Program-made: the position numbers and the translations under genes | Source of the DNA: Candidatus Gastranaerophilales bacterium | GTDB taxonomy: Bacteria > Cyanobacteriota > Vampirovibrionia > Gastranaerophilales > Gastranaerophilaceae | Reading direction: 5' to 3' | Length of the DNA: 64,000 nucleotides | Assembly: GCA_944326485.1 (NCBI GenBank) | Contig: CALVED010000005.1 | Coordinates: 1 to 64,000, forward strand | Notes under the pieces: model-generated | Database searches by the model: none | What the model was told of the DNA's origin: nothing | What the model saw: only the letters and a program-made list of their open reading frames with translations | In this document: positions 17,650 through 31,231 of the stretch, piece after piece | How the letters are laid out: every line of letters starts with the position of its first letter | Position numbering within the stretch: the first letter of the stretch is position 1

Positions 17650-18029
17650 AAATTATGCTCTTTCCATTTTCTATAATCAAACTTAATATCTTTTAATTTA
17701 ATGCCCAATTTTTCTGCTTTTTTATTAACTAATGAAAAAATTTTTTCTTTTTCAAAATATAATTCATTTGCGACAAAAGAATCTTTGCATACTACTGTAA
17801 GAACATTATCGGCAGAAATTTCAAAAAGTTTAGAAAATTTTGAAATTTTATTACCAATTATTTCTTCCCAACTGTTAAACAAATCTGCTTGGGCTTTTTG
17901 ATTTGTTTCTTCATAATGAAAATCAATATTATTAATTATATTTTGTATTGATTCAAAATCTGAATTATTTATCTTTTTCATAAATATTATTATAAAGCTA
18001 TTTTTAATTTTCTCAAAAGACTTAATCAT
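17646..18029 (-). CDS. DUF721/DciA-like protein
   Basis: A 127-residue protein whose core (LFNSWEEIIGNKISKFSKLF, VLTVVCKDSFVANELYF) matches the DUF721 family, whose member DciA loads the replicative helicase DnaB in bacteria lacking DnaC/DnaI. The ATG at 18029 overlaps the end of the upstream thymidylate kinase, favouring coupling; MKKINNSDFE at residue 17 is an alternative start without a clear RBS. A DciA loader fits a cyanobacterial-type lineage. Assignment is by motif only. Confidence 0.75.
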   Translation of the reverse strand: MIKSFEKIKNSFIIIFMKKINNSDFESIQNIINNIDFHYEETNQKAQADLFNSWEEIIGNKISKFSKLFEISADNVLTVVCKDSFVANELYFEKEKIFSLVNKKAEKLGIKLKDIKFDYRKWKEHNL

Positions 18030-18690
18030 TTACTATATCAAGAATAGTTTTTACTTTATTAACAATCTTTTTATGAATTTCTTTTTCACTTAAAGTACCA
18101 TCTATTGAAATAAACCCATATTCTTTAATCATTTTTTGATATTCATCTAAACATTTACCTTGATAAATTTGAAAACTTTTATAAAAATCACTACTTAAAC
18201 CAATATCTCTGCCGGATTCCCAATAATCAAGACCGGTAGTACCTATAATTCTCTTCAAGAGAATTTCAACCGGAACATCTAAATAAAAAACCATATCAGG
18301 CTCTGGGGCATATTCATATAAATTTTTCAGCCAATTTATATCATGCCCTCTTACTACATCACGTGCATATGCAGTATATACATATCTATCAAGAATAACA
18401 ACAAATCCTGCTTTTAAAGCAGGTAATATTATATTTTCTAATCTATCTGCAAAATCAGCAGCATATAATAAACTAAATGTAGTAGCATTTAAAAGATTTC
18501 TTTCTTTTGCATCATTAATAGCATCTGCAATAAATTTAGAAGTTTTCCACTCACTTACCATAACTCCGTAGGATTGATCTTCAATCCAACGTTTTAAACG
18601 CTCAATTTGAGTAGATTTACCGGAACCATCAGTCCCTTCTATTACTATTAATAAGCCATCATAGCCACTTTTTGATTTATATTCAGCCAT
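18022..18690 (-). CDS. tmk: Thymidylate kinase, downstream copy
   Basis: dTMP kinase family, 222 residues. The P-loop is GTDGSGKST (19-27) and the nucleotide-binding block DRYVYTAYARD begins at 101. RIIGTTGLDYWESGRDIG stands where the lid lies. It abuts the upstream paralog with no spacer and has the same architecture, which indicates tandem duplication. Either copy, or a heteromer, could provide cellular dTMP kinase activity. Confidence 0.88.
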   Translation of the reverse strand: MAEYKSKSGYDGLLIVIEGTDGSGKSTQIERLKRWIEDQSYGVMVSEWKTSKFIADAINDAKERNLLNATTFSLLYAADFADRLENIILPALKAGFVVILDRYVYTAYARDVVRGHDINWLKNLYEYAPEPDMVFYLDVPVEILLKRIIGTTGLDYWESGRDIGLSSDFYKSFQIYQGKCLDEYQKMIKEYGFISIDGTLSEKEIHKKIVNKVKTILDIVND

Positions 18691-19374
18691 TTATAAAGTA
18701 ATTCCTTTTTGAGCCAATACTTTTTTCACTTCTTCTCTAAAGAATAATTGTTTTTTATGAATGCTATCATTAGCATCAATTTCAACTAAACCATACTCTT
18801 CAATCATTTTTTGATACTCATCATTTACACGTTTTTGAAAAATTCTGTAACTTTCGTATGGATCATTACTTATTTTTAAATCCATACCTGCTTCATAAAA
18901 TTTAGGTGAACGATTTGAACATATTCTTTCGAGCGAAACATCTTCAGACACTCTAAAATACAAGGTTAAATCAGGTCTTACAGCAAAACCGTATACCTTT
19001 CTAACCCAATTCCTATCTACACCTCTTGCAACATCACGAGCAAATGCTGTATAAACATATCTATCCGCTAAAACTATAAAACCAGCCTTTAATGCAGGTA
19101 TAATAACCTGTTCCAATCTGTCTGCAAAATCTACTGCATGTAAAAGTGAAAATGTTCTGGGACTTAAAAGATTCTTCTTTTTTGCCAATTTTGTAGTTTG
19201 TGAGATTAAATCAGAAGAATTCCATTCAGTAAAAATTACATCTTGCTTAAGAGATTTCAGCCAATCCCTTAATATTACAAGTTGTGTAGATTTACCTGAG
19301 CCATCAATTCCTTCAACACAAATTAAAGTCCCTGGAAGATTATGAGGTTGATTTAATCTTGATTTATTTCTCAT
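18691..19374 (-). CDS. Thymidylate kinase, upstream paralog
   Basis: A 227-residue paralog of the following gene: P-loop GIDGSGKST (22-30), DRYVYTAFARDVARGVD, and a lid-like segment around ERICSNRSPKFYEAG. It has a longer basic N-terminus (MRNKSRLNQPHNLPG). Conservation of catalytic blocks in both copies argues against simple decay. One may have shifted to a different nucleoside monophosphate. It is the first gene of a four-gene unit (kinase, kinase, DciA-like, pilin-like). Confidence 0.85.
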   Translation of the reverse strand: MRNKSRLNQPHNLPGTLICVEGIDGSGKSTQLVILRDWLKSLKQDVIFTEWNSSDLISQTTKLAKKKNLLSPRTFSLLHAVDFADRLEQVIIPALKAGFIVLADRYVYTAFARDVARGVDRNWVRKVYGFAVRPDLTLYFRVSEDVSLERICSNRSPKFYEAGMDLKISNDPYESYRIFQKRVNDEYQKMIEEYGLVEIDANDSIHKKQLFFREEVKKVLAQKGITL

Positions 19375-22426: not shown

Positions 22427-22909
22427 ATGAAAAATATATTCTTACTTATTTTAACAATTTTATTAATCATTTCTATTATCTTTAATATAAAATTTAACAA
22501 TGAAATTAATACTTATAAGACAATGGTTTTAGTTTCAAATCAACAACTTACTACTAATGAATACGAGAAAATAGAAATTGAAAAAATATTTAAATTTGAT
22601 AAAATTAACTACATTGTATCAAGTTTCAAGTATTATGCTGCAACTCCTTGGTGTTGGCATATACACGAAGATGGTCAATTATTATATGTAGTTAGTGGTT
22701 ATGGTTTTTATCAAGAAGAAAATGAGAAAGTTAAAAAAATAAAAAAAGGTGATATTATATACACAAAACCAGGGGTAAAAAGCTGGCATGGTTCTACACA
22801 AGATGATGATTTAGTTATAATTACTATATCACCTTATTCAGAACATGTAGTTAAAATATTAGAACCTGTAAATAAAGTATATTATGATGATATTAATGAA
22901 GAGGGTTAG
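22427..22909 (+). CDS. Membrane-anchored cupin-domain protein
   Basis: A 160-residue protein with one N-terminal membrane anchor (about 4-22) followed by a cupin barrel on the outer face. Metal-ligand-like residues are seen in CWHIHEDGQLLYVVSG and, in the second half, PGVKSWHGS. Small cupins of this kind often sit in gene clusters with aldo/keto reductases and flavodoxins, as here, but their substrates are mostly unknown. RBS GGGGGG precedes the ATG and a strong terminator overlaps the stop, so it is its own unit upstream of the redox operon. The membrane anchor is unusual for the family and matches the exported nature of its neighbours. Confidence 0.82.
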   Translation: MKNIFLLILTILLIISIIFNIKFNNEINTYKTMVLVSNQQLTTNEYEKIEIEKIFKFDKINYIVSSFKYYAATPWCWHIHEDGQLLYVVSGYGFYQEENEKVKKIKKGDIIYTKPGVKSWHGSTQDDDLVIITISPYSEHVVKILEPVNKVYYDDINEEG

Positions 22910-23170: not shown

Positions 23171-24406
23171 ATGAAAAGACGCGAGTTTATATTAAGTTCA
23201 ATAATGACTCTTGGAGCAAGTACATTATTAACTTCAGGATGCACCAAAAAAGAAATAAAAAAATCTGACAACCAAATATTAAGAATAAAATTTAAAGATA
23301 TTGATATACCTATTTTAGGATTCGGTTGTATGAGACTACCAATGAGAAATGGAAAAATTGATATTATTGAAATGGAAAAAATGGTTGAACATGCAATGGC
23401 GCATGGTGCTAATTATTTTGATACCGCTTATATGTATGTAAAATCTCAATCAGAAATTGCTATCGGAAAAATTTTAAAAAAATACCCAAGAAAAAGTTTT
23501 TTCTTAGCTGATAAATGTCCTGCTTATCTTGTTAATTCAAAGGAAGATGTACAAAAACTTTTTAAGGAACAATTAAAAAAATGCCAAGTTGATTATTTTG
23601 ATTTTTATATGGTACATAATATCAATAAAAATAGTATAAGTAACTACAGAAATAATGATATGTACGAAGAGCTTTTAAAACTCAAGAAAGAAGGAAAAAT
23701 TAAATATCTTGGGTTTTCTTTTCATGGCGACACAAAAATGCTAAAAGAAGTTATAAATGAACACGTTTGGGATTTCTGTCAATTACAAATAAATTATCTT
23801 GATTGGGAAATTACTAATGCAAAAGAATTATATGAAATAGCAGATAAAGCAAAAGTTCCAATTATAGTGATGGAACCGTTAAGAGGCGGAGGTTTATGCA
23901 AATTACCAGATAAGGCAATTAATATACTAAAAGAAAATTGTCCTAATGATACTCCGGCTTCTTTTGGCTTAAGGTGGTTATCTGCACAAAATAAATCACG
24001 AATTTTCCTTATTTTAAGCGGAATGAGTAATACTCAACAAATGAAAGAAAATCTTGATACATTTGTTAATTATAGAGAATTTACAAAAGAGGAAGAAAAT
24101 ATATCTTCTGATATTGTTAAAATAATACAACAGCAAGGTGAAATTAATTGTACTGCTTGTAAATATTGCTTAGAAGTTTGCCCCAGAGGAATTAATATTC
24201 CGGCTATTTTTAATATTTACAATAATTACAAAGGAAATAAAGAAAACTCATTTTTTAAAATGTATTATAATTCTCTTAATGATTCAGAAAAAGCAGAAAA
24301 TTGTATAAAATGCGGATTATGTAATAAAAACTGTCCTCAAGGTCTTGATATTCCAACATTACTTACAAAAGTAGAAGATACATATAAAAATATTAAAGGG
24401 AAATAA
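23171..24406 (+). CDS. Tat-signal lipoprotein aldo/keto reductase with C-terminal 4Fe-4S clusters
   Basis: A 411-residue oxidoreductase. The N-terminus MKRREFILSS...LLTSGC combines a twin-arginine motif (Arg3-Arg4) with a lipobox (Cys24), so it should be exported folded by Tat and anchored as a lipoprotein. The aldo/keto reductase barrel keeps the catalytic tetrad: Asp and Tyr in FDTAYMYVKSQSE, Lys in FLADKC, His in YMVHN. Two C-terminal ferredoxin motifs follow (CTACKYCLEVCPRGI and CIKCGLCNKNCPQGL), each with four Cys. It abuts the polyferredoxin gene with no spacer, and tatA and tatC follow. Inference: a periplasmic reductase fed electrons through its Fe-S clusters by the next protein. Substrate unknown. 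Confidence 0.9.
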   Translation: MKRREFILSSIMTLGASTLLTSGCTKKEIKKSDNQILRIKFKDIDIPILGFGCMRLPMRNGKIDIIEMEKMVEHAMAHGANYFDTAYMYVKSQSEIAIGKILKKYPRKSFFLADKCPAYLVNSKEDVQKLFKEQLKKCQVDYFDFYMVHNINKNSISNYRNNDMYEELLKLKKEGKIKYLGFSFHGDTKMLKEVINEHVWDFCQLQINYLDWEITNAKELYEIADKAKVPIIVMEPLRGGGLCKLPDKAINILKENCPNDTPASFGLRWLSAQNKSRIFLILSGMSNTQQMKENLDTFVNYREFTKEEENISSDIVKIIQQQGEINCTACKYCLEVCPRGINIPAIFNIYNNYKGNKENSFFKMYYNSLNDSEKAENCIKCGLCNKNCPQGLDIPTLLTKVEDTYKNIKGK

Positions 24407-25687
24407 ATGAAAAATAAACTTTACCAAATCAGATTATTTATAACACTTATAATCTTTATTTTTATAATTTTAGGAATTATAGGTATTTTTTATCCTATTA
24501 ATATATTTGATATTCAATTAGTTCCTCTCTTACAAAAATCCATTATAAACTTCTCAATAATTACTATTATTATACTTTCTGTAATATTAATAATAACATT
24601 ATTTTTCGGAAGATTATATTGCTCATTAATATGTCCTATGGGCATTTTTCAAGAAATACTAGGTTTAATTTTCAAAAAAGATAACGAATATCAGAAAAAT
24701 AAACCATATAAGTATTTCATTTCAGCAATAACAATAGGATTTATGATTGGTGGAAGCACTTTATTAATAAAATACTTAGATCCATACACTTTATTTACTT
24801 CTGCTTTTACATATTCAATAATAGGTTTATCAGCAATTATAATAATTGCAATTATTACTTTCTTTAAGAATAGATTTTTCTGCACTAATATATGTCCTGT
24901 TGGAACTATTTTAGGATTAATTTCTAAAATTTCTATTTTTAAGTTATACATAGATAAAAATGAATGTTTATCTTGTTCTAATTGTGAAAGAAATTGTCCT
25001 ACCGGTTGTATTAATTCTGATGAAGAAATTATTGATAATGAAAACTGCATAAAATGCTTAAAATGTATTGGTAATTGTCCTAAAGATGCTATAAAATTCG
25101 GAATAAAACCAAAAGAAGAAGTTAAATTTAATATAAAAAGACGTGAAACAATAATAGCAATATCAGCTTGTGCAATATTTTTAGGTGCTATAAAAATAGG
25201 TTTTGAAAAATTAAATAATACAATTAGTAAATTTAGAGATGTTATTCTACCTCCTGGCAGTATTAATGAAGAAAGACTTTTAGATAAATGCTTAAATTGT
25301 AATTTATGTGTAAATGCTTGTCCTAATAAAATTATTAAAAAAGCAGATAATGAATTTAATGCGGTACATATTGATTATAATAGCGGAGAAAAATTTTGTA
25401 AGTTTAACTGTAATGAATGTTCAAAAGTATGCCCATCAGGTGCTATAAAAAGAATTTCATTAGAAGAAAAGCAAAAAACAAGAATTGCAATGGCTACAAT
25501 TAATGAAGATAAATGTATAAATTGTAATTATTGTATTTCTGTATGTCCTGTTAATGCTATTTCTAAATCAGAGAGAGGAAAATCAATAGTTGATGCATCT
25601 AAATGTATAGGCTGCGGAGCTTGCGTTAAAAACTGTAATGTCAATGCTATTAATATATTTGCCGTAAAAGAGCAAAAAGTATTATAA
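24407..25687 (+). CDS. Membrane polyferredoxin, NapH-NapG-like fusion
   Basis: A 426-residue protein in two halves. The first resembles NapH: four membrane helices with paired CxxxCP motifs at their ends (YCSLICPMG at about 71-79, FCTNICPVG at about 158-166) and two cytoplasmic 4Fe-4S motifs (CLSCSNCERNCPTGC, CIKCLKCIGNCP, 187-224). Next comes KRRETIIA (244-251), a twin-arginine-like sequence leading into a further membrane helix. The second half resembles NapG, with four-Cys clusters at 295-305, 331-342, 370-380 and 400-410. If the internal RR segment is a Tat anchor, the second half lies outside. Inference: it moves electrons from quinol or cytoplasm to the exported reductase. Confidence 0.88.
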   Translation: MKNKLYQIRLFITLIIFIFIILGIIGIFYPINIFDIQLVPLLQKSIINFSIITIIILSVILIITLFFGRLYCSLICPMGIFQEILGLIFKKDNEYQKNKPYKYFISAITIGFMIGGSTLLIKYLDPYTLFTSAFTYSIIGLSAIIIIAIITFFKNRFFCTNICPVGTILGLISKISIFKLYIDKNECLSCSNCERNCPTGCINSDEEIIDNENCIKCLKCIGNCPKDAIKFGIKPKEEVKFNIKRRETIIAISACAIFLGAIKIGFEKLNNTISKFRDVILPPGSINEERLLDKCLNCNLCVNACPNKIIKKADNEFNAVHIDYNSGEKFCKFNCNECSKVCPSGAIKRISLEEKQKTRIAMATINEDKCINCNYCISVCPVNAISKSERGKSIVDASKCIGCGACVKNCNVNAINIFAVKEQKVL

Positions 25688-25708: not shown

Positions 25709-25924
25709 ATGTCATTAGGCATAACTGAAATTACATTAATATTAGTTGTTATATTACTTCTATTTGGTGGAAAAAGAATTCCTGAACTTGCAAGAGCACT
25801 CGGAAAAGCTTCTTATGAATATAAAAAAGCAAAAGAACTTATAAAAAAAGAAGCAGATGAAATTAAAGATGCTATTGAAGATGCACAGGAAAAACCTGAA
25901 GAATATAAACCTAATGATGTATAA
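25709..25924 (+). CDS. tatA: Sec-independent protein translocase TatA/TatB family
   Basis: A 71-residue TatA-type protein: short hydrophobic helix (TEITLILVVILLLFGGKRIP), the conserved FG-x2-(K/R)-(I/L)-P hinge, an amphipathic helix (ELARALGKASYEYKKAKEL) and an acidic tail. TatA oligomers form the Tat pathway conduit. With RBS AAAGGAG it follows the polyferredoxin gene by 21 bases and precedes tatC by 5. No separate tatB is present in the window, so a minimal TatAC system is likely. Confidence 0.94.
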   Translation: MSLGITEITLILVVILLLFGGKRIPELARALGKASYEYKKAKELIKKEADEIKDAIEDAQEKPEEYKPNDV

Positions 25925-25929
25925 ATAAA

Positions 25930-26685
25930 ATGAGTAATGAAGAAAATAATGAAAGTTTTATCTCACATTTAGAAGCTTTAAGAAGCACTATTTTAAAGTG
26001 TTTATATTCTGTTGCTATTGTTCTTCCTTTTACATTTTTTATTTCACCAAAGGCTTTAAATTGGCTACTAGACATAATTTTAAGAGATAATAAAGTTACT
26101 CTAAATTATTTTTCACCTGTTGAAGTTTTTTTAATTCAAATAAAAATAGCTATTTTAATAGACTTAATAATATGTTTTCCATATATAGCAAAACAAATTT
26201 GGAATTTTATTCTTCCTGCATTATATGAACATGAAAAAAAATTTATAAAATCTATTGTACTATTTTCAAGTTTATTATTCATAAGTGGAGTATTATTTTG
26301 TATATTTTTTATTCTTCCTTTAATAATAAATTTTGGACTTAGCTTTACAACAGAAAATATTCAAGCAGTACTAAATATATCAAATATTGTAATGCTTTCA
26401 TTATGGTTAAGTATAGCATTCGGTATAATGTTTCAAGTACCTATAATAACAATGGCACTAATAAAATCAGATTTTATTTCTTATGAAACAATTGCAAGTA
26501 AAAGGCCTTACATTATTGTTGTATTGCTTATTATTGCCGGTATTTTAACTCCTCCTGATGTTATAAGTCAATTAATGCTTGCTATTCCAACTTATTTACT
26601 ATTTGAAGCAGGACTTCTATTTTCAAAAAAAAGCAAAAAACAATTAATTTCACCTGTAGAAAATGAAAATACTTCTCTTGACTGA
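25930..26685 (+). CDS. tatC: Sec-independent protein translocase TatC
   Basis: The receptor for twin-arginine signal peptides, 251 residues with six membrane segments. Conserved features are the N-terminal SFISHLEALRSTILK, FSPVEVFLIQIKIAI in the first periplasmic region, KQIWNFILPALYEHEK, and the C-terminal ILTPPDVISQLMLAIP with YLLFEAG. It sits directly after tatA and after two genes bearing RR motifs, which suggests a system whose local clients are the reductase and polyferredoxin. The TGA stop overlaps a TTGACTGA motif ahead of larB. Confidence 0.95.
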   Translation: MSNEENNESFISHLEALRSTILKCLYSVAIVLPFTFFISPKALNWLLDIILRDNKVTLNYFSPVEVFLIQIKIAILIDLIICFPYIAKQIWNFILPALYEHEKKFIKSIVLFSSLLFISGVLFCIFFILPLIINFGLSFTTENIQAVLNISNIVMLSLWLSIAFGIMFQVPIITMALIKSDFISYETIASKRPYIIVVLLIIAGILTPPDVISQLMLAIPTYLLFEAGLLFSKKSKKQLISPVENENTSLD

Positions 26686-26714: not shown

Positions 26715-27398
26715 ATGAAAGATAAAAATAAATATATTGATATTGATTTTGCAAAATTGGATATTGATAGAGAAAAAAGACGAGGATATAGTGAAGCTAT
26801 ATTTTGTGAATGTAAAACTAATGAACAATTAATTAAAATTTTTTCAGAATTAAAAGATAAAAATAAAAATATAATTGGTACAAGAGCAAGTTTTGAACAA
26901 TATCAAGCATTAAAAACTAAATTTGATAATATAAATTATCATAAAGAAGGAAGAATATTAACTCTTATTCAAAATGAAATTAACAAAATAGGAGAAGTTG
27001 CAGTCTGCACCGGAGGCACAGGTGATATTCCTATTGCAGAAGAAGCTGCTATTACAGCAGAATTTTTTGGAAGTAATGTTAAAAGATATTATGATATAGG
27101 CATTTCTGCCATGCATAGACTACTTGATAAAATTGATGAAATTAAAAAAGCTAATGTAATTATTGCAGTAGCAGGCATGGAAGGTGCTTTAGGCTCTATC
27201 ATAACAGGGTTAGTAGATGTACCTGTTATTGCAGTTCCAACATCAATAGGTTATGGTTCTTCATTTAACGGATTAAGCGCCCTTCTTACAATGCTTAATT
27301 CTTGTGCAGAAGGTATGACTGTTGTTAATATTGATAACGGTTTTAATGCAGGATACAGCGCAAATCAAATAAACAGAAAAATATCAGGAGTTAAATAA
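26715..27398 (+). CDS. larB: Nickel pincer cofactor biosynthesis protein LarB
   Basis: Carboxylase/hydrolase that converts nicotinic acid adenine dinucleotide to the dicarboxylated pyridinium mononucleotide, the first step to the nickel-pincer nucleotide of lactate racemase. The 227-residue length fits the family: an N-terminal domain, then a PurE-like domain beginning VAVCTGGTGDIPIAEEA (about 96-112), with YYDIGISAMHRLL, VAGMEGALGSII and VPTSIGYG. It overlaps larC by one base. It follows tatC by 29 bases, so it joins the redox genes. Confidence 0.93.
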   Translation: MKDKNKYIDIDFAKLDIDREKRRGYSEAIFCECKTNEQLIKIFSELKDKNKNIIGTRASFEQYQALKTKFDNINYHKEGRILTLIQNEINKIGEVAVCTGGTGDIPIAEEAAITAEFFGSNVKRYYDIGISAMHRLLDKIDEIKKANVIIAVAGMEGALGSIITGLVDVPVIAVPTSIGYGSSFNGLSALLTMLNSCAEGMTVVNIDNGFNAGYSANQINRKISGVK

Positions 27399-28147
27399 TG
27401 AATTTATATTTTGAATGTAAATCAGGAATATCAGGAGATATGTCAGTTGCAGCCTTATTAGATTTAGGTGCTGATAAAAAATTACTAGAAAAAGCTCTTA
27501 ATTCAATGATGTTAGATGACGAATTCAGCTATGAAATTTCAAAAGTAAAAATAAATTCTATTGAATCAACTGATTTCAATGTAATTTTAAAAGAAGATTT
27601 ACATCATCATCATATTGAACATCATCATGAACACAGAAATTTAGATGATATATATAAAATAATTGATAGAACAGATATTAGTGAAAATGCCAGAAATCTA
27701 TCAAAAAAAATATTTAAAATAGTAGCTCAAGCTGAAGCAAAAGTTCATGGAAAAAATATATCAGAAATTCATTTCCACGAAGTAGGAGCAATTGATTCTA
27801 TAATAGATATAATAAGTTTTTCTGTTTTGTATGATAGTTTAAATGTTGAAAAAGTATATTTTTCAACACTAAGTGAAGGAGAAGGTTTTGTTGAATGTAC
27901 ACACGGCATACTTCCCGTTCCTGTTCCTGCCGTTTGTGAAATAGTTAAAGAATATAATCTTCCTATAAGAATAACAGATAATAACGGAGAAATGATAACA
28001 CCAACCGGTGCTGCTATTGCTGCTGCATTATATACAAAAGAAAAGTTACCAGATTCTTTTATAATAGAAAAAATAGGTTATGGCGCAGGAAAAAGAAAAT
28101 ATAAAAATCCTATTTTAAGAGTAATGTCAATAAAAGGAGAAAATTAA
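27398..28147 (+). CDS. larC: Nickel insertion protein LarC, N-terminal (LarC1-like) part only
   Basis: LarC (DUF111 family) is a CTP-dependent nickel insertase that completes the cofactor. This protein has the N-terminal features: FECKSGISGDMSVAALLDLG, a His-rich metal-binding loop (HHHHIEHHHEH, about 68-78), EIHFHEVGAIDSIIDI, CTHGILPVPVPA and ITPTGAAIAA. At 249 residues it is far shorter than the usual 400 or so and ends near GYGAGKRKYKNPILRV, where the C-terminal LarC2 domain would begin. The next gene starts within its stop codon, so no LarC2 follows. In Lactobacillus the two parts are joined by frameshifting; nothing like that is possible here without reading into cbiM. Confidence 0.9.
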   Translation: MNLYFECKSGISGDMSVAALLDLGADKKLLEKALNSMMLDDEFSYEISKVKINSIESTDFNVILKEDLHHHHIEHHHEHRNLDDIYKIIDRTDISENARNLSKKIFKIVAQAEAKVHGKNISEIHFHEVGAIDSIIDIISFSVLYDSLNVEKVYFSTLSEGEGFVECTHGILPVPVPAVCEIVKEYNLPIRITDNNGEMITPTGAAIAAALYTKEKLPDSFIIEKIGYGAGKRKYKNPILRVMSIKGEN

Positions 28148-29058
28148 TGCATTTAGGTAATTCAATTATATGCCCTGTAACAGGTATACCAATGATTGTT
28201 CTAGCTGGTATCATGGCATATATTTCATATAAAAAAGCTAAAAAAGATATAAAAAAAGAAAATATAACATTAATAAGTTCATTAACAATGCTGGTTTTTT
28301 CAATGCAAATGATTAATTTTTCAATTCCGCAAACAGGTTCAAGCGGACATATAATAGGTGCTGTATTACTTTCAGCTATCTTAGGACCATATATTGGATA
28401 TATTGCAATGTGTATTATTTTACTTATTCAAGCAATATTTTTTGCAGATGGAGGATTATTAGCTTTAGGCTGTAATATATTTAATATGGCATTTTTAACT
28501 TGCTTTATTGTTTATCCTTATATTTATAAACCATTAGCAGATAAGAATAAACTTATACCAGCAGCAATTATATCAAGCATAGCTGCTTTACAATTAGGTT
28601 CTTTAGCTGTTGTGATTGAAGCGAAATTATCAGGAAGTATTTCAAATAATATAAGTTATTTTTTAAGTTTAATGCAAACAATTCATCTTCCAATAGGAAT
28701 TATTGAAGGGATTTTTACTGCTTTAATTATTCTTCTAATAAAAAAATATGAATTATCAAACAAATTAAATTACATATTCTATAGTATATCTATAGTTCTT
28801 GCGAGTATAATTTCACAATATGCATCAAATAAACCAGATGGTCTTGAATGGTCTTTATTAAAAATATCTGATTCTTTTATGGAATTAACTCAAGGTATAA
28901 TATTTTCATTCAGTACTTACTTACAAGAAAAACTTGCTGTTTTAATTAATATTAATTCAATATTAGCAAATACTATTGGCATATTTATTATAATGATAAT
29001 TATGTTAATTATAAAGAAAACCATTTGTTATGAAGTAATAAGAAAAGATGAAAAATAA
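28147..29058 (+). CDS. CbiM/NikM-like energy-coupling factor transporter substrate-binding membrane subunit
   Basis: Integral membrane subunit of a cobalt/nickel ECF-type importer, 303 residues. It begins MHLGNS; the N-terminal Met-His is the metal-coordinating start in CbiM/NikM. Typical core motifs follow (SIPQTGSSGHIIGAVLLSAI, LGPYIGYI, FFADGGLLALGCN, FNMAF). The usual MHIPDG is altered to MHLGNS, and a C-terminal extension adds extra helices, possibly a fused CbiN/PDGLE-like part (NKPDGLEW near 240). Its placement among lar genes points to nickel as the metal. No CbiQ or CbiO partners are in the window. It overlaps larC by one base and larE by 11. Confidence 0.88.
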   Translation: MHLGNSIICPVTGIPMIVLAGIMAYISYKKAKKDIKKENITLISSLTMLVFSMQMINFSIPQTGSSGHIIGAVLLSAILGPYIGYIAMCIILLIQAIFFADGGLLALGCNIFNMAFLTCFIVYPYIYKPLADKNKLIPAAIISSIAALQLGSLAVVIEAKLSGSISNNISYFLSLMQTIHLPIGIIEGIFTALIILLIKKYELSNKLNYIFYSISIVLASIISQYASNKPDGLEWSLLKISDSFMELTQGIIFSFSTYLQEKLAVLININSILANTIGIFIIMIIMLIIKKTICYEVIRKDEK

Positions 29059-29845
29059 ATTTGAAGAACTTAAAAAGTATTTATTAAAAATAGAAAAGCA
29101 AGGTATTTGCCTTGCTTTTTCCGGTGGAATTGATTCCAGCTTACTTCTTTATTTATGTAAAGATCTTAATGTTCATGCAATTACTTTTAAATCAATTTTT
29201 CAAACTGAAGAGGAAATACAAGAAACAATAAATTTCTGTCAAAAATATAATATTAAACACAAAATAATAGAATTTTTTCCATTAAATAATCCTTTAATAA
29301 AGGCAAATCCAATTGATAGATGCTATTTTTGTAAAAAATATTTTTTTATAGAATTAATTAAATATTCAAAAGAAAACAATTTAAACTATATAATTGACGG
29401 TACAAATTTTGATGACACAAAGACATATCGCCCGGGAATTAAAGCACTTAAAGAATTAGGGATTATTTCTCCTTTTGCTGTTTTTAAAATAAAAAAAGAT
29501 GAAATTAAAAATTATTTAAAAGAATTAAATATTGATATTTATAATAAAGTATCAAAACCTTGTATTGCTACAAGGTTTGAATATAATAAAGAATTTTCCG
29601 AAAAAAATATTGAAATGGTAAAAAAAGGAGAAAAAATACTAAAACAATACGGATTTATAAATAATAGGTTAAGATTTCATAATAACATTGCAAGGATAGA
29701 AATAGATAAAAATAAATTTAATAATTTTATAAATCATAGTAAAAAAATAACAGAAGAATTAAAAAATATTGGTTTTAAATATGTTACACTTGATGTTGAG
29801 GGCATAAGAAGCGGAAGTATGGATATAGATATAAATGGATATTGA
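29048..29845 (+). CDS. larE: Nickel pincer cofactor sulfur transferase LarE
   Basis: ATP-dependent sulfur insertase of the PP-loop family that adds sulfur to the pyridinium carboxylates of the nickel-pincer nucleotide. The 265 residues include the P-loop SGGIDS (25-30), the RCYFCK motif (Cys92, Cys95) and KPCIATRFEY with Cys172, equivalent in position to the sacrificial Cys176 of Lactobacillus LarE. I see no extra Cys cluster next to Cys172, which favours the sacrificial type over the 4Fe-4S type (inference). It overlaps the gene before and the gene after. Confidence 0.93.
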   Translation: MKNKFEELKKYLLKIEKQGICLAFSGGIDSSLLLYLCKDLNVHAITFKSIFQTEEEIQETINFCQKYNIKHKIIEFFPLNNPLIKANPIDRCYFCKKYFFIELIKYSKENNLNYIIDGTNFDDTKTYRPGIKALKELGIISPFAVFKIKKDEIKNYLKELNIDIYNKVSKPCIATRFEYNKEFSEKNIEMVKKGEKILKQYGFINNRLRFHNNIARIEIDKNKFNNFINHSKKITEELKNIGFKYVTLDVEGIRSGSMDIDINGY

Positions 29846-30401
29846 TAATTTTGAAAAATTTTTAAATAGCGTTAATGAAGATTTAGCTAAAATTTTTGAA
29901 TATCAAAAAGAATATATTTTATGTAAAAAAGGTTGTTCATACTGCTGCAAGCAAGGTGATTTTCCAATATCTGAAATTGAATATAAATATTTAATGTTAG
30001 GATTTAATAAGCTTGATGAATTAACAAAGAAAGAAATAAATAAAAATATAAAAAAAATAAAAGAACAACAAAATAAAGACTCCTATGTTTGTCCATTTTT
30101 AATAAATGATATTTGTTCTATATACGAATACAGACCTTTTGTATGCAGAACTTTTGGCGTACTTACAGAAGATGCAAAAGGAAATCCAACATTCCCTTTT
30201 TGTGCTTCTTTAAATTTAAATTATTCACAAATTTATGATAAAGAAAAAAAACATTTATCAATGGATTTAGTTGAAAAAAATAACTTTAAAATATACCCTA
30301 AAATTTTTAGATTAAATAATAAAATAATAATGAATTTACCACTTGCTAAACAACTAAACATAAATTTTGGTGAAGCAAAAAAAATGATAGATTTTCTATA
30401 A
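29835..30401 (+). CDS. YkgJ-family cysteine cluster protein
   Basis: A 188-residue protein with the Zn/Fe-binding cluster motif CKKGCSYCC (about 32-40), then CPFLINDICSIYEYRPFVCR (about 96-115) and a further Cys in FPFCASL. The family binds a metal cluster and has no settled function, though members are sometimes linked to flagellin methylation or metal handling. It overlaps larE by 11 bases and is the last gene of the nine-gene block. A repeat copy begins six bases after its stop. Confidence 0.85.
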   Translation: MDIDNFEKFLNSVNEDLAKIFEYQKEYILCKKGCSYCCKQGDFPISEIEYKYLMLGFNKLDELTKKEINKNIKKIKEQQNKDSYVCPFLINDICSIYEYRPFVCRTFGVLTEDAKGNPTFPFCASLNLNYSQIYDKEKKHLSMDLVEKNNFKIYPKIFRLNNKIIMNLPLAKQLNINFGEAKKMIDFL

Positions 30402-30640: not shown

Positions 30641-31231
30641 ATGAGAAAGAATTTTTTATTAATTTTAATAATAATTATTATAACAATCGGATTTTTATTT
30701 ATAAAAGTTAATGCAGAAAATAATACAGATTTAAAAAAAGGAGCTATTATGCCGGAAAGAAAAATACTTATAGCATATTATTCATATTCAGGTAATACAA
30801 AATATATAGCTGAAAAAATTCAAAAAATAACAAAAGGTGATTTATTTGAAATAAAAACAGTAAAAACATATCCTAAAAATTATAATGAAGTTGTAGAAGA
30901 AGCTAAAAAAGAAAAAAATAATGATTATAGACCGGAACTTCAATCAAAAGTAGAAAATATAAATGAATATAATATAGTATTTATAGGAACGCCTGTATGG
31001 TGGTATACAATGGCACCTGCAGTTAAATCATTTATAAGTGAAAATGATTTAAAAGGAAAAATAATTATTCCATTCTGCACACACGGTGGCGGAGGTGCTT
31101 CTTCTACATTTATTGATATGGCTAAATTATTACCTTATTCTAAAGTATTAAAAGGTATTGAAATTTATGAAAGAGGTAATGCTTCTACAGATAAAGATAT
31201 TAATATTTGGATTGAAAACTTAGATATTTAA
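30641..31231 (+). CDS. Flavodoxin-family protein with N-terminal membrane anchor
   Basis: A 196-residue flavoprotein. A hydrophobic signal/anchor (about 5-25, ending VNAENN) precedes a flavodoxin fold with the FMN-phosphate loop YYSYSGNTKYIAEKI, a WWYTMAP loop (FIGTPVWWYTMAPAVKSFI) and THGGGGASSTFIDMAKLLP. Flavodoxins are normally cytoplasmic electron carriers; an exported one fits the exported cupin and aldo/keto reductase nearby. The shared promoter motif and repeats suggest common control with the preceding operon. An internal ATG (MPERKILIAYY) could give a soluble form. Confidence 0.85.
   Translation: MRKNFLLILIIIIITIGFLFIKVNAENNTDLKKGAIMPERKILIAYYSYSGNTKYIAEKIQKITKGDLFEIKTVKTYPKNYNEVVEEAKKEKNNDYRPELQSKVENINEYNIVFIGTPVWWYTMAPAVKSFISENDLKGKIIIPFCTHGGGGASSTFIDMAKLLPYSKVLKGIEIYERGNASTDKDINIWIENLDI

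What the first reader, a model, noticed from the sequence alone, without database searches (positions are those of the whole stretch)
24407..25687. NapH-NapG-like fusion with an internal twin-arginine anchor
Seen: a four-helix NapH-type half with CxxxCP motifs and two cytoplasmic-type ferredoxin motifs is followed by KRRETIIA plus a membrane helix (about 244-267) and four further Cys clusters. In Nap systems NapH and NapG are separate and NapG is exported by Tat. A fused form with an internal RR would be a dual-topology protein needing Sec/YidC and Tat, like the Rieske and some actinobacterial iron-sulfur proteins.
Basis: partly seen in the sequence, partly recalled or inferred. Interest (0 to 1): 0.7.

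Follow-up and report, generated by a model that had tools for sequence, protein, structure and literature searches.

The report
Dual Sec-Tat membrane polyferredoxin with Tat operon
A gut bacterium related to cyanobacteria carries one membrane protein with iron-sulfur wires predicted on both sides of its membrane; the protein type was described in 2017, but here its gene sits beside the genes of the export machine that should move its outer half, in bacteria reported to lack membrane electron carriers.

Summary
ORF 24407-25687 (426 aa) has a NapH-like four-helix half with two CxxxCP motifs, two 4Fe-4S motifs, KRRETIIA, a fifth helix and four more Cys clusters. The architecture is not new: Tooke et al. 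2017 (PMC5449189) described NapH-NapG fused "polyferredoxins" with RR before TMD5 and showed Tat-dependent export of reporters fused after the TMDs of the MLMS-1 member. This protein meets the sequence criteria used there: RR is invariant in 32/32 homologues; computed insertion energy of TM5 is positive in 32/32; lysines follow TM5. New here is the context. The gene lies between a Tat-signal lipoprotein aldo/keto reductase with two 4Fe-4S motifs and tatA-tatC. The order AKR-polyferredoxin-tatA-tatC is contiguous in 28 loci, and tatC lies just downstream in 46 of 47 family genomes with both located. Gastranaerophilales are described as fermenters without membrane electron carriers; no MenD or MqnA/D was found. 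Best reading: a dual Sec/Tat-assembled electron wire delivering cytoplasmic electrons to exported acceptors. Direction, donor and substrate are inferred. AlphaFold models were too poor to test topology. Two Tat-signal-like radical-SAM proteins elsewhere argue against a Tat system for this module alone.

The parts
22427..22909 (+). Cupin with N-terminal membrane anchor or signal; possible extracytoplasmic accessory
   Evidence: Cupin_2 1.5e-9; hydrophobic N-terminus; cupin or CMD-cupin also upstream of AKR in G044 and G019
23171..24406 (+). Aldo/keto reductase with Tat signal (MKRREFIL...LTSGC, lipobox-like Cys) and C-terminal 2x[4Fe-4S]-type Cys motifs
   Evidence: Aldo_ket_red 3e-37 and Fer4 families; RR and Cys24 in 29 of 30 aligned N-termini, D84/Y89/K115/H149 in 32/32, eight Cys conserved where present
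24407..25687 (+). NapH-NapG-like polyferredoxin (the finding)
24428..24868 (+). TM1-TM4 (residues 8-29, 49-71, 102-124, 133-154), predicted Sec-inserted
   Evidence: dG -4.7, -3.5, -0.3, -1.8
24620..24637 (+). First CxxxCP motif (C72-P77)
   Evidence: Cys in 31/31 rows with letters
24881..24898 (+). Second CxxxCP motif (C159-P164)
   Evidence: Cys in 31/31 rows with letters
24965..25078 (+). Predicted cytoplasmic 2[4Fe-4S] ferredoxin (C187-C224)
25139..25144 (+). Internal twin arginine R245-R246
   Evidence: 32/32 invariant
25145..25204 (+). TM5, predicted Tat-dependent, low hydrophobicity, with K263 and further lysines downstream
   Evidence: dG +0.39 here; +0.09 to +1.72 in 32 homologues
25289..25636 (+). 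Four predicted extracytoplasmic [4Fe-4S] motifs (NapG-like)
25709..25924 (+). TatA
   Evidence: TatA_B_E 9.4e-16, above Pfam cut-off
25930..26685 (+). TatC, the only TatC found in this genome
   Evidence: TIGR00945 170 bits, cut-off 132.7; single hit in own genome
26715..29845 (+). LarB, LarC, CbiM-like transporter, LarE (nickel-pincer cofactor genes) in the same gene run; probably not part of the redox module
   Evidence: LarB, LarC and LarE retained in G024 without AKR and polyferredoxin
30641..31231 (+). Flavodoxin with N-terminal signal or anchor; possible extracytoplasmic acceptor
   Evidence: Flavodoxin_4 1.8e-29; anchored homologue directly upstream of AKR in G019

Best explanation
24407-25687 encodes a dual-targeted transmembrane polyferredoxin of the NapH-NapG fused kind. 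TM1-4 enter by Sec with the N-terminus and the first ferredoxin pair inside. TM5 is too polar and too lysine-rich at its C-terminal end to be kept by Sec, so the RR before it hands it to TatAC, which moves the folded, cluster-loaded C-terminal domain outside. The finished protein is an iron-sulfur wire across the membrane, taking electrons from cytoplasmic ferredoxin (less likely a quinol) to extracytoplasmic acceptors. The favoured acceptor is the co-encoded Tat-exported Fe-S aldo/keto reductase lipoprotein, possibly with the anchored flavodoxin and cupin. Shown: sequence features, conservation, gene order. Inferred: actual Sec and Tat use, orientation, donor, direction of flow, substrate.
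For: Domain halves. RR 32/32, TM5 dG positive in 32/32 while TM1, TM2 and TM4 are negative in all 31 and TM3 has median -0.96; Tooke et al. list TM5 values of 0.30 to 1.72 for their polyferredoxins and show Tat dependence for the MLMS-1 member. AKR starts MKRR[ED]F in nearly all, with RR and lipobox Cys in 29/30. AKR-FUS-TatA-TatC contiguous in 28 loci; in the family sample tatC follows the fusion on the same strand in 46 of 47 genomes with both located. In 35 genomes of the genus: 28 have fusion and TatC, 6 neither, 1 TatC only. MenD below cut-off and MqnA/D not found in the 97%-complete genome. Published absence of respiratory carriers.
Against: No experiment on this lineage. AlphaFold models failed (pLDDT 36 and 40), so topology rests on sequence. 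The co-occurrence count ignores relatedness, and since the genes are adjacent, one deletion or assembly gap removes them together. G024 kept tatAC after losing AKR and the fusion, and Tat-signal-like radical-SAM proteins exist elsewhere, so Tat has other likely clients. A MenA-like prenyltransferase is present, so quinone use is not excluded. The AKR tetrad is intact, so NAD(P)H chemistry is not excluded.
Confidence: 0.72

Rival explanations
1. It is a fused NapGH-type quinol dehydrogenase: electrons come from a menaquinol made from scavenged naphthoate, not from ferredoxin.
For: NapH-like half with CxxxCP pairs; a MenA-like UbiA prenyltransferase in this genome and most of the genus.
Against: MenD and MqnA/D not found; the MenA-like gene is equally present in genomes that lack the fusion; Di Rienzi et al. 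report no quinone electron carriers, although they add that one gut genome may make vitamin K.
Confidence: 0.3
2. Electrons run inward: the exported AKR oxidises an outside alcohol and the wire delivers electrons to cytoplasmic ferredoxin or hydrogenase.
For: Fe-S chains are reversible and AKRs can work as dehydrogenases (general knowledge).
Against: Low-potential 2[4Fe-4S] ferredoxins are hard to reduce with alcohols (general knowledge); no direct test either way.
Confidence: 0.2
3. The RR is only a positive-inside anchor; TM5 is inserted by Sec/YidC and the outer domain gains its clusters outside or does not carry them.
For: Lysines and arginines before a helix are common (general knowledge).
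Against: RR invariant in a lysine-rich protein, TM5 dG positive in 32/32, tatAC next door, experimental precedent.
Confidence: 0.08
4. TM5 does not span the membrane and both ferredoxin parts are cytoplasmic.
For: Marginal predicted TM5 hydrophobicity.
Against: Marginal hydrophobicity is the published signature of the Tat-dependent helix in this protein type; RR conservation.
Confidence: 0.07

Closest known systems
Polytopic polyferredoxin (PFD), MLMS-1 Q1NSB0 and homologues, Tooke et al. 2017 eLife 26577
   Same: NapH-NapG fusion, five TMDs, cytoplasmic clusters then RR directly before TMD5, four outer clusters, positive charges after TMD5, positive TMD5 insertion energy
   Different: TM5 at 245-266 here versus 338-359; two canonical cytoplasmic 4Fe-4S motifs plus two CxxxCP motifs versus three clusters reported; AKR and tatA-tatC next door; sequence identity to Q1NSB0 not computed
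NapH and NapG of nitrate respiration (NapGH quinol dehydrogenase)
   Same: Membrane half with CxxxCP and 2[4Fe-4S]; Tat-exported four-cluster half
   Different: Separate proteins there; both halves score far below curated cut-offs here; no nap genes seen in the gene run; no menaquinone route found
Actinobacterial Rieske QcrA and Sco3746 (dual Sec-Tat proteins)
   Same: Last TMD preceded by RR and handed from Sec to Tat because of low hydrophobicity and C-terminal charge (experimental there)
   Different: Unrelated domains (Rieske; heme b and MoCo)

Membership tests
Tooke et al. NapH-NapG polyferredoxin (dual Sec-Tat) | NapH-like four-TMD half fused to NapG-like multi-cluster half | tested here: met
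   Profile matches 42-237 (NapH) and 239-419 (NapG), five helices
Tooke et al. NapH-NapG polyferredoxin (dual Sec-Tat) | Twin arginine directly before TMD5, conserved | tested here: met
   32/32
Tooke et al. NapH-NapG polyferredoxin (dual Sec-Tat) | Positive predicted insertion energy of TMD5 and positive charges after it | tested here: met
   0.09 to 1.72 kcal/mol by my own implementation with recalled Hessa 2007 parameters; paper 0.297 to 1.715
Tooke et al. NapH-NapG polyferredoxin (dual Sec-Tat) | Tat-dependent export of the C-terminal part | not testable with these tools
   Needs reporter fusions
Tooke et al. NapH-NapG polyferredoxin (dual Sec-Tat) | Three cytoplasmic and four outer 4Fe-4S clusters | tested here: inconclusive
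   Two canonical inner motifs plus two CxxxCP motifs; four outer motifs, one degenerate in 10/32
NapH (TIGR02163, NF007013) | Score over curated cut-off | tested here: not met
   102.4 against 213; 102.0 against 234
MauM/NapG (TIGR00397, NF007012) | Score over curated cut-off | tested here: not met
   56.9 against 178.9; 53.8 against 269
TatC (TIGR00945, PF00902) | Score over curated cut-off | tested here: met
   170.2 against 132.7; 189.6 against 25.1
Aldo/keto reductase (PF00248) | Family match and Asp-Tyr-Lys-His tetrad | tested here: met
   3e-37; D84, Y89, K115, H149 32/32
Aldo/keto reductase (PF00248) | NAD(P)H as reductant | not testable with these tools
   Needs purified enzyme; AKR model too poor

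The most novel reading that the evidence does not exclude
A lineage called strictly fermentative keeps a quinone-independent, outward electron-export module (polyferredoxin wire plus Tat-exported Fe-S aldo/keto reductase) whose translocase is encoded in the same operon and largely gained and lost with it, i.e. a Tat system kept mainly for one extracytoplasmic reduction pathway.
Probability: 0.3. Interest if true: 0.65.

Novelty: new member of a known kind. Interest (0 to 1): 0.4.

Why it matters
It extends the 2017 dual Sec-Tat polyferredoxin type to gut relatives of cyanobacteria and ties it by gene order to its translocase and to a plausible exported redox partner. It also questions the published statement that Gastranaerophilales lack membrane electron carriers: a conserved transmembrane Fe-S chain is predicted there, and an external electron sink would change how their fermentation balance is modelled.

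Tried and rejected
AlphaFold2 on the polyferredoxin and on AKR (three-row alignments from the loci allowed in such jobs): mean pLDDT 36 and 40, discarded, no fold search run. 'Stops inside' the NapH-like paralogues of G006, G011 and G021 suggested recoding; G021's copy is simply a separate 233-aa NapH-only gene followed by a YkgJ-like gene, and G006, G011 and G001 show the same order. Bacteroidales hit L032 is NapH-like only, not a fusion. A functional link to the MenA-like prenyltransferase was rejected because it is present with or without the fusion. A link to the Lar genes was judged weak: G024 keeps Lar genes without AKR and fusion. A Tat system exclusive to this module was rejected after two more Tat-signal-like proteins were found. 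Sequence identity to Q1NSB0 could not be computed.

Full report
What is there. The ORF at 24407-25687 encodes 426 residues. NapH-family profiles match residues 42-237 and NapG-family profiles 239-419, both well below curated cut-offs, and Fer4 families match repeatedly. Helices are predicted at 8-29, 49-71, 102-124, 133-154 and 245-266. Two CxxxCP motifs (C72, C159) follow TM2 and TM4. A 2[4Fe-4S] ferredoxin (C187-C224) comes next, then KRRETIIA with R245-R246, TM5, and four Cys clusters from C295 to C410.

Is it more than chance. I collected the homologous protein from the genus and order and aligned 32 rows. R245 and R246 are unchanged in all 32, while K outnumbers R about three to one in these proteins. 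All outer-cluster Cys are invariant except C373, which is N or T in 10 of 32. Predicted insertion energy is favourable for TM1, TM2 and TM4 in every complete row, has median -0.96 (range -2.11 to +0.25) for TM3, and is positive (median +0.68, range +0.09 to +1.72) for TM5 in all 32. The energies come from my own implementation with parameters recalled from Hessa et al. 2007, so they are approximate; the contrast between helices is the result.

Prior art. Tooke et al. 2017 (PMC5449189) describe this protein type: five TMDs, cytoplasmic clusters, a conserved RR directly before TMD5 and four outer clusters, explained in their discussion as a fusion of NapH with NapG. For the MLMS-1 member they show that MBP and AmiA reporters fused after the TMDs are exported only with Tat and with RR intact, and that the protein is membrane-inserted without Tat. 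They report positive TMD5 energies of 0.297 to 1.715 and attribute hand-over from Sec to Tat to low hydrophobicity plus C-terminal positive charge. The present protein meets those sequence criteria, so it is filed as a new member of that kind. 'Dual-topology' in the finding should read 'dual-targeted'.

Surroundings. AKR ends at 24406 and the polyferredoxin starts at 24407; tatA follows after 21 bases and tatC after 5 more. AKR begins MKRREFIL and has a lipobox-like TSGC; across relatives RR and the Cys are kept in 29 of 30 aligned N-termini, the AKR tetrad in 32/32, and the eight C-terminal Cys wherever that part is present. AKR is therefore a likely Tat-exported lipoprotein carrying two 4Fe-4S clusters, a plausible partner for the outer half of the polyferredoxin. 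In G019 a CMD-cupin protein and a flavodoxin, both with N-terminal anchors, lie directly before AKR; G044 has an anchored cupin before AKR and an anchored flavodoxin after LarE. The window itself has a cupin at 22427 and a flavodoxin at 30641 of the same style.

Conservation of gene order. AKR-polyferredoxin-tatA-tatC is contiguous in 28 loci. Contig ends interrupt it in G023 and G031. In G022 and G009 AKR and the fusion are together but tatC is on another contig. In the genus sample of 35 genomes, 28 have fusion and TatC, 6 have neither and 1 has TatC only (the unweighted Fisher probability is 4e-6, but relatedness and adjacency inflate it). In the family, 88 of 239 sampled genomes have TatC over the cut-off; for the 47 genomes with both genes located, tatC is immediately downstream of the fusion in 46. 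G024, whose TatC is 95% identical to the window's, has lost cupin, AKR and fusion but keeps tatA-tatC and lar genes.

How it most likely works. Positive-inside reasoning (lysines around the TM2-TM3 loop and after TM4) puts the N-terminus and the first ferredoxin pair inside. With an odd number of helices the last four clusters are outside. They must be loaded before export, which is what Tat allows and Sec does not (established knowledge of the Tat pathway). The result would be an electron wire across the membrane. As donor I favour cytoplasmic ferredoxin: MqnA/D was not found and MenD is below its cut-off, and published reconstructions find no quinone carriers or respiratory complexes in these organisms (Di Rienzi et al. 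2013, PMC3787301; Soo et al. 2014, PMC4040986), although Di Rienzi et al. add that one gut genome may make vitamin K. A MenA-like prenyltransferase exists, but it occurs also in genomes without the fusion, so a quinol donor remains a rival. The favoured acceptor is AKR. Direction of flow and substrate are inference.

Other Tat clients. A pattern scan of the genome gave in-frame RR starts; two, at G000:C9:49067 and G000:C1:210899, open proteins beginning MKRRDF[IL]CG..C.LAGF that match Radical_SAM. Homologues with the same kind of start occur in other TatC-bearing genomes, and in TatC-lacking G021 the copy is frameshifted with the RR replaced. So Tat here probably serves more than this module. 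The scan covered only signals with Phe at +2 and a second codon starting with A, and its matches were no more numerous than those of the reversed control pattern, so it is not a census; only the read-out proteins count as evidence.

Limits. The two structure predictions were unusable. No sequence of Q1NSB0 was compared. All functional steps beyond sequence and gene order are inferred.

Noticed in passing
L121:900-1865 (G000:C1:210899) and L120:595-1587 minus (G000:C9:49067): Two radical-SAM-like proteins with textbook Tat-type N-termini (MKRRDFLCGASCLLAGFALG, MKRRDFICGLSCMLAGFGL). An exported radical SAM enzyme would be very unusual; relatives with the same start are in TatC-bearing genomes.
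   Followed up: partly
L135 (G021:C6, about 65234-66194): In G021, which lacks TatC, AKR and the fusion, the Tat-signal radical-SAM gene is broken into several frames and its RR is lost: a natural hint that the gene needs Tat.
   Followed up: partly
window 25930-26685 and relatives: TatC has HLEALR where E. coli has HLIELR: Glu15 is replaced by Ala in most of the genus, with Glu at the preceding position; the Glu103 region is kept (E. coli sequence recalled from memory).
   Followed up: partly
window 8448, 19739, 31254, 51894, 62718; L064:6864-6891: A short dispersed repeat around GGATGACTCGGTAACAAAGTG (five near copies in the window, none expected by chance); a copy lies at the point where G024 lost cupin-AKR-polyferredoxin, and a similar translated stretch flanks the G024 radical-SAM remnant (L136).
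   Followed up: partly
L058, L059, L060, L061 and L062, L063: Separate NapH-only paralogues (233-235 aa in the two read out, L060 and L062) in six genomes; in four of them they precede a YkgJ-like gene whose homologue follows larE in the window (29835-30401).
   Followed up: partly
window 26715-29845: LarB, LarC, CbiM-like and LarE genes follow tatC, but no LarA was seen in the stretch read; the nickel-pincer enzyme served is unknown.
   Followed up: no
window 18022-19374: Two tandem, related thymidylate-kinase-like genes.
   Followed up: no
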